Positions 5,585-5,706 of a DNA stretch of 64,000 bases are shown here, piece after piece. Source of the DNA: a virus; IMG/VR virus record IMGVR_UViG_3300031566_000009, positions 18,076 through 82,075 of that record; one strand, written 5' to 3'. The stretch's first letter is position 1, and every line of letters begins with the position of its first letter. Made by a program: the position numbers and the translations under genes. The notes beneath the pieces are model-generated. The model saw only the letters and a list, made by a program, of their open reading frames with translations, made no database searches and was not told where the DNA came from.

Positions 5585-5706
5585 GGTTGGGGGCTGGACT
5601 CGAACCAGCGACCTCTTCCTTAACATGGATAACCGTCGAACCTCGACCCTTGCAGATATGTTATGCCCAACGGGTTTAGTGCTCTACCAACTGAGCTACC
5701 CCAACC
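5585..5706 (-). ncRNA. tRNA-like domain (YrlA-type tRNA mimic)
   Basis: The minus strand shows a 7-bp acceptor stem (GUUGGGG with CCCCAAC), UA at positions 8-9, a D arm (GCUC-AGUUGGUA-GAGC) and a T arm (GCUGG-UUCGAGU-CCAGC) after AGGUC. The anticodon arm is replaced by about 60 nt. These can fold as CUAAAC/GUUAAG with one mismatch, then GGCAUAAC/GUUAUCC with a bulged C, then a GUCGA/UCGAC hairpin. At 122 nt it is too long for a normal tRNA and has no proper anticodon loop. Bacterial YrlA Y RNAs carry just such a tRNA mimic. A GUU sequence in the arm could suggest tRNA-Asn, but its stem pairs poorly. Confidence 0.78.

What the first reader, a model, noticed from the sequence alone, without database searches (positions are those of the whole stretch)
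5585..5706. tRNA mimic with acceptor, D and T arms but a rebuilt anticodon arm
All tRNA body elements are perfect, yet about 60 nt of nested stems replace the anticodon arm. This is the known design of YrlA tRNA-like domains rather than a decoding tRNA. It could recruit tRNA-modifying or processing enzymes. Being phage-borne, it may evolve independently of host YrlA.
Basis: partly seen in the sequence, partly recalled or inferred. Interest (0 to 1): 0.72.

Follow-up and report, generated by a model that had tools for sequence, protein, structure and literature searches.

The report
Phage Y RNA built like tRNA
This phage carries, just upstream of its Ro60 gene and on the same strand, an RNA shaped like a complete transfer RNA whose anticodon arm has been replaced by a predicted Ro60-binding hairpin; it is the circularly rearranged counterpart of the known bacterial YrlA RNA and also occurs in myxobacteria and other phages.

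Summary
It has a full tRNA body (Rfam tRNA, 47.2 bits with a 61-nt insert), and the insert carries a Ro60-binding hairpin. Two more copies of the Ro-binding motif flank the RNA. It is therefore almost certainly a Y RNA for the phage's own Ro60. It is not simply a YrlA: in YrlA the RNA's own 5' and 3' ends form the Ro stem and the acceptor is a closed hairpin, i.e. YrlA is a circular permutation of tRNA. Here the order is that of a real tRNA, with an open acceptor stem and the Ro hairpin in place of the anticodon loop. I found this colinear form beside Ro60 in 9 other viral records, in many Myxococcota and in a few other bacteria, with strong covariation. A model built without the window finds it at E 1.7e-22. 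Permuted forms are the commoner type in Actinomycetota and their phages. On a Ro60 tree the topology needs about 7 changes. Rfam's YrlA model misses the colinear form and I found no description of it, but the key Y RNA papers could not be read.

The parts
5586..5705 (-). Colinear tRNA-like Y RNA: 5' acceptor 5705-5699, D arm 5696-5681, rebuilt anticodon arm about 5680-5615, variable loop 5614-5610, T arm 5609-5593, 3' acceptor 5592-5586; G5706 can pair with C5585
   Evidence: Rfam tRNA 47.2 bits; leave-one-out covariance model 92.7 bits
5633..5673 (-). Ro60-binding hairpin in place of the anticodon loop (9-bp outer stem, internal loop AUAACAU/CGAG, 4-bp inner stem AUCU/GGGU)
   Evidence: Constrained and free fold agree; same helices covary in 22 relatives
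5628..5649 (-). Ro motif GGGUCGAGGUUCGACGGUUAUC, middle copy, inside the insert
   Evidence: same motif beside Ro60 in most relatives
5708..5778 (-). Upstream plain Y RNA-like hairpin with Ro motif copy at 5769-5748
   Evidence: weak Rfam RF01656 (nematode sbRNA) match 20 bits
5432..5584 (-). Downstream Y RNA-like domain with Ro motif copy at 5579-5558; forms the leader of the Ro60 mRNA
   Evidence: fold z -3.2; RF01656 25.1 bits, below gathering
3740..5422 (-). Ro60 / Rsr protein (TROVE + Ro60 vWA), 560 aa, next gene downstream
   Evidence: Pfam 3e-66 and 1e-43; vertebrate Ro60 chains E 7e-136 to 2e-134, D. radiodurans Rsr E 3e-109
5781..5809 (-). Candidate sigma70 promoter TTGACA-N17-TACTAT with TG before the -10, just upstream of the first Y module
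   Evidence: consensus scan only, 1 found vs 0.9 expected by chance

Best explanation
It is a phage Y RNA, the RNA partner of the Ro60 protein encoded just downstream. The hairpin in place of the anticodon loop is the Ro60-binding site; the intact acceptor/D/T half is a tRNA mimic that recruits a tRNA-binding effector, by analogy PNPase and tRNA-modifying enzymes. Unlike YrlA, the module is colinear with tRNA, so its open acceptor ends should be cut out of the Y-Y-Y-Ro60 transcript by host RNase P and the 3' tRNA nuclease. Shown here: the architecture, covariation, genetic linkage to Ro60 and the two topologies. Inferred: Ro60 binding, excision, effector recruitment.
For: Ro60 with TROVE and vWA is the next gene. 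The Ro motif is in the insert and in both flanking modules. Colinear relatives with the same fold lie beside Ro60 in other viruses and in bacteria. Helices that were not used to select the relatives covary: 80.7% of cells paired, covariation score 0.507 vs 0.235 shuffled and at most 0.23 when slid. Linkage: among viral contigs picked by DNA pattern only, the 3 with model score above 75 bits all encode TROVE and the other 13 tested, all under 70 bits, do not. In 140 genomes of one phylum (Myxococcota), 8 of 9 TROVE genomes have the RNA beside TROVE and none of 131 others does (p 3e-12). In 192 genomes of one class, 17 of 18 RNA-positive genomes have TROVE. No other tRNA in the window, and the model finds no second copy in the 82-kb record.
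Against: No RNA or protein data; binding and processing are not shown. In the window copy the inner Ro helix is weak (AUCU/GGGU, only one G-C pair) and lacks the usual CUUGCCC strand. Only two pairs of the anticodon stem are clear in the window. One RNA-positive genome (G611) lacks a TROVE hit.
Confidence: 0.88

Rival explanations
1. A decoding tRNA gene with an intron in the anticodon loop that is spliced out.
For: Perfect tRNA body; Rfam tRNA 47 bits.
Against: The insert carries a conserved Ro60-binding hairpin and the RNA occurs beside Ro60; there is no 32-38 loop with U33 left on either side; about 60 nt is far too short for a group I intron; helices inside the insert covary.
Confidence: 0.03
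2. An ordinary YrlA of the permuted type, misread by picking a T arm and a D arm from two neighbouring copies in a tandem array.
For: Such arrays exist and give false colinear readings (L062, L063, L144).
Against: In the window there is one T arm and one D arm, and the only acceptor partner is the upstream one; the scanner finds no permuted reading; no other tRNA-like element in the record. Tandem permuted arrays score at most 66 bits with the colinear model, true colinear ones mostly above 80.
Confidence: 0.04
3. A decoy or anti-defence RNA whose tRNA body titrates a host nuclease or tRNA-binding toxin, with Ro60 as its stabiliser.
For: Phage-borne; [quoted passage not shown]
Against: The same RNA is chromosomal in myxobacteria; no defence or toxin context was identified here. 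Not exclusive with the best explanation.
Confidence: 0.12
4. A tRNA-shaped processing signal: it only marks cut sites that free the flanking plain Y RNAs from the Ro60 mRNA.
For: Flanked on both sides by Y modules in the same orientation, open acceptor stem.
Against: The Ro hairpin inside the insert is conserved, which a pure cut signal would not need; elsewhere it lies downstream of Ro60 (G592, G605, G656).
Confidence: 0.1

Closest known systems
YrlA, bacterial Y RNA (Rfam RF02553; Salmonella YrlA structure 6CU1)
   Same: Encoded near Ro60; tRNA-like acceptor/D/T core; Ro-binding stem at the anticodon position
   Different: YrlA is a circular permutation: 5' Ro strand - T arm - closed acceptor hairpin - D arm - 3' Ro strand. 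Here the order is acceptor - D - Ro hairpin - T - acceptor, with an open acceptor. Rfam's YrlA model scores only 15 bits here (gathering 69)
Permuted Y RNAs of actinobacteria and actinophages (e.g. L063 Gordonia phage Cashline, L120 Cellulomonas) and of viral contig L005
   Same: Same Ro motif, same tRNA modules, beside the same protein family; L005 is among the nearest Ro60 relatives of the window
   Different: Acceptor closed by a short loop such as ACCA or UCG; the RNA's ends lie at the Ro stem. None of 9 named cultured actinophages tested has the colinear form
Plain Y RNAs (D. radiodurans Y RNA, vertebrate Y RNAs, nematode sbRNAs)
   Same: Ro-binding stem; the 5' strand of the two flanking modules scores 20-25 bits with nematode sbRNA RF01656 and holds the UUAUC motif named in PMC4726728
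   Different: No complete tRNA body; Ro stem made by the RNA's ends
tmRNA
   Same: tRNA body with the anticodon arm replaced by other RNA
   Different: ARAGORN finds no tmRNA; linked to Ro60, not SmpB

Membership tests
Ro60-associated Y RNA (broad sense) | Encoded next to a Ro60/Rsr gene | tested here: met
   Ro60 at 3740-5422, same strand; linkage across genomes and viruses
Ro60-associated Y RNA (broad sense) | Ro60-binding helix with conserved GGYCGR strand | tested here: met
   Motif at 5649-5628, helix covaries in relatives; inner helix weak in the window copy
Ro60-associated Y RNA (broad sense) | Physical binding by Ro60 | not testable with these tools
   needs immunoprecipitation or gel shift
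YrlA (RF02553) | tRNA-like domain with acceptor, D and T arms | tested here: met
YrlA (RF02553) | Ro stem formed by pairing of the RNA's 5' and 3' ends, acceptor closed by a loop (permuted order) | tested here: not met
   Colinear order; no permuted reading found; YrlA order and PMC8394870, PMC11472068, PMC6181284
YrlA (RF02553) | Reaches the Rfam gathering score of 69 | tested here: not met
   15 bits; permuted phage RNAs in L034 and L063 also fail, so the model is narrow
YrlA (RF02553) | Carries dihydrouridine and pseudouridine; binds PNPase | not testable with these tools
   needs RNA
tRNA | 7-nt anticodon loop with U33 on a 5-bp stem | tested here: not met
   About 60-nt insert; only 2-3 stem pairs
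tRNA | 3' CCA encoded | tested here: inconclusive
   No CCA in 31 colinear RNAs, but only 5 of 33 neighbouring normal tRNAs have it

The most novel reading that the evidence does not exclude
Bacteria and phages hold a second, colinear class of tRNA-mimicking Y RNA, a real tRNA with a Ro60 hairpin for an anticodon. It is processed, CCA-tailed and perhaps even aminoacylated like tRNA, and it interconverts with the permuted YrlA class by circular permutation in tandem arrays.
Probability: 0.3. Interest if true: 0.8.

Novelty: new variant of a known kind. Interest (0 to 1): 0.58.

Why it matters
Known tRNA-mimicking Y RNAs hide the acceptor end in a closed hairpin. A colinear class with an open acceptor makes different predictions: RNase P maturation, CCA addition, possibly charging and EF-Tu binding. 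It suggests how YrlA could have arisen from a tRNA, by swapping the anticodon loop for a Ro60 site and then permuting, and it can be tested in myxobacteria. It also shows that tRNA and Y RNA annotation of phage and myxobacterial genomes misses or mislabels these RNAs.

Tried and rejected
Intron-bearing tRNA: rejected on the conserved Ro motif, the covariation inside the insert and the Ro60 linkage. Tandem-permuted artefact: tested with scores and with the permuted scanner, rejected for the window. Histidine identity from G-1:C73: the window and a minority of relatives have G-1:C73, and any -1:73 pair occurs in 23 of 31 relatives against 17 of 33 normal tRNAs nearby, so not pressed. Missing CCA: uninformative for the same reason. 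Named cultured phages: nucleotide search finds only generic tRNA similarity, and 9 cultured actinophages tested lack the colinear form. Free-energy z-score: weak on the right strand, so not used as evidence. The key Y RNA papers (Chen 2014, Wang 2018, Sim 2018 and 2020) are not in the held library, so prior mention of the colinear form cannot be excluded.

Full report
What is there. The reported segment is a tRNA body on the minus strand of an 82-kb virus record. The record is a tailed phage: the window has a terminase large subunit and a tape-measure protein. Rfam's tRNA model covers 5705-5585 end to end with 47.2 bits and a 61-nt stretch where the anticodon arm should be; ARAGORN finds no tRNA. 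Acceptor, D and T arms are perfect, as are the bases of the tRNA core and a 5-nt variable loop (read directly).

The next gene on the same strand, 3740-5422, is Ro60: Pfam vWA_Ro60 3e-66 and TROVE 1e-43, with matches to vertebrate Ro60 and to D. radiodurans Rsr. The insert holds GGGUCGAGGUUCGACGGUUAUC, and two more copies of this motif lie within 120 nt on either side. The flanking copies fold into plain Y RNA-like hairpins and score weakly with Rfam's nematode sbRNA/Y family. A consensus promoter sits just upstream (no better than chance by itself).

Relatives. I fetched 59 viral and 80 bacterial loci by Ro60 similarity. The Ro motif lies beside Ro60 in most. A scan for tRNA modules shows two arrangements. 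In the permuted one the Ro strand is followed by the T arm, an acceptor hairpin closed by a short loop, the D arm and the second Ro strand; this is YrlA (structure line; PMC8394870; PMC11472068 calls 6CU1 a circular permutation of tRNA; PMC6181284). In the colinear one the order is acceptor, D arm, Ro hairpin, T arm, acceptor. The window belongs to the second kind, as do viral loci L014 (L153 is the same contig), L015, L022, L026, L030, L035, L176, L202 and L210, and bacterial loci L067, L070, L072, L074, L075, L079, L084, L087, L108, L136, L141, L142 and L146.

Structure test. A plain MAFFT alignment of 22 colinear RNAs gives 89.6% of cells paired over six helices. Acceptor, D and T pairing was part of the selection, so I counted the other three helices alone (anticodon stem and the two Ro helices): 80.7% paired, covariation score 0.507 against 0.235 in shuffles and 0.11-0.23 when slid. 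A covariance model built without the window finds the window RNA at 92.7 bits, E 1.7e-22, with no second hit.

Linkage test. Sixteen viral records reached by a DNA pattern, not by Ro60, were tested for TROVE: the three with model score above 75 bits have it, the other 13, all under 70 bits, do not. In 140 genomes of the phylum of L146 (Myxococcota), 8 of 9 TROVE genomes have the RNA on the same contig near TROVE and none of 131 others does; one further hit there is an ordinary 72-nt tRNA. In 192 genomes of the class of L074, 17 of 18 RNA-positive genomes have TROVE; Fisher p 3e-12 and 1e-10, and still below 1e-6 without the genomes that came in through Ro60. Of 198 genomes in the phylum of L075 only L075's own has it, of 201 in the phylum of L067 two. 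L075 is a MAG labelled Glaciihabitans whose Ro60 groups with Myxococcota, so its label is doubtful.

Evolution. On a Ro60 tree of 142 sequences the labels colinear and permuted need at least 7 changes, 2 of them forced by well-supported branches (quick tree). Near the window sits L005 with a clean permuted YrlA closed by ACCA and followed by a strong terminator-like hairpin. Tandem copies, as in L015, make both readings possible and are a plausible route between the two (inference).

How it works (inferred). Transcription from upstream of the first Y module gives a Y-Y-Y-Ro60 transcript. RNase P and a 3' tRNA nuclease would cut out the middle RNA at its acceptor stem, which the permuted form with its closed acceptor would not need. 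Ro60 would bind the hairpin at the anticodon end, and the tRNA half would hold a tRNA-binding partner, as YrlA-type RNAs hold PNPase and are modified by DusA and TruB (PMC8394870). The Ro motif in the Ro60 leader could let Ro60 regulate its own mRNA.

Limits. No RNA data. The window copy has a weak inner Ro helix. The primary Y RNA papers were not readable, so novelty is stated against Rfam and the held literature only.

Noticed in passing
window 5584-5432 (-): The leader of the Ro60 mRNA itself folds as a Y RNA-like domain with a Ro motif, which could give autoregulation of Ro60 by its own product.
   Followed up: partly
L226 2289-2161 (-); L148 10535-10647; L177 1986-2098: tRNA-like elements with an insert in virus records that have no TROVE gene; they score 67-69 bits with the colinear model. 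What the insert is remains unexplained.
   Followed up: partly
L267 2159-2225 (Microbacterium phage SM23, PQ655446.1): An annotated tRNA-Asn overlaps a Ro motif and the T arm of a permuted Y RNA beside Ro60; it is probably a mislabelled Y RNA.
   Followed up: partly
[quoted passage not shown]
   Followed up: no
window 31819-34293 (+): An 824-aa protein in the structural gene region carries a LAGLIDADG endonuclease and a weak intein splicing domain, so probably an intein in a phage protein.
   Followed up: no
L070, L072, L074, L075, L087: Ro60 and the colinear Y RNA lie inside arrays of ordinary tRNA genes.
   Followed up: no
L022 4984-5116; L210 9328-9461: These colinear RNAs carry an extra small hairpin between the D arm and the Ro hairpin.
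   Followed up: no
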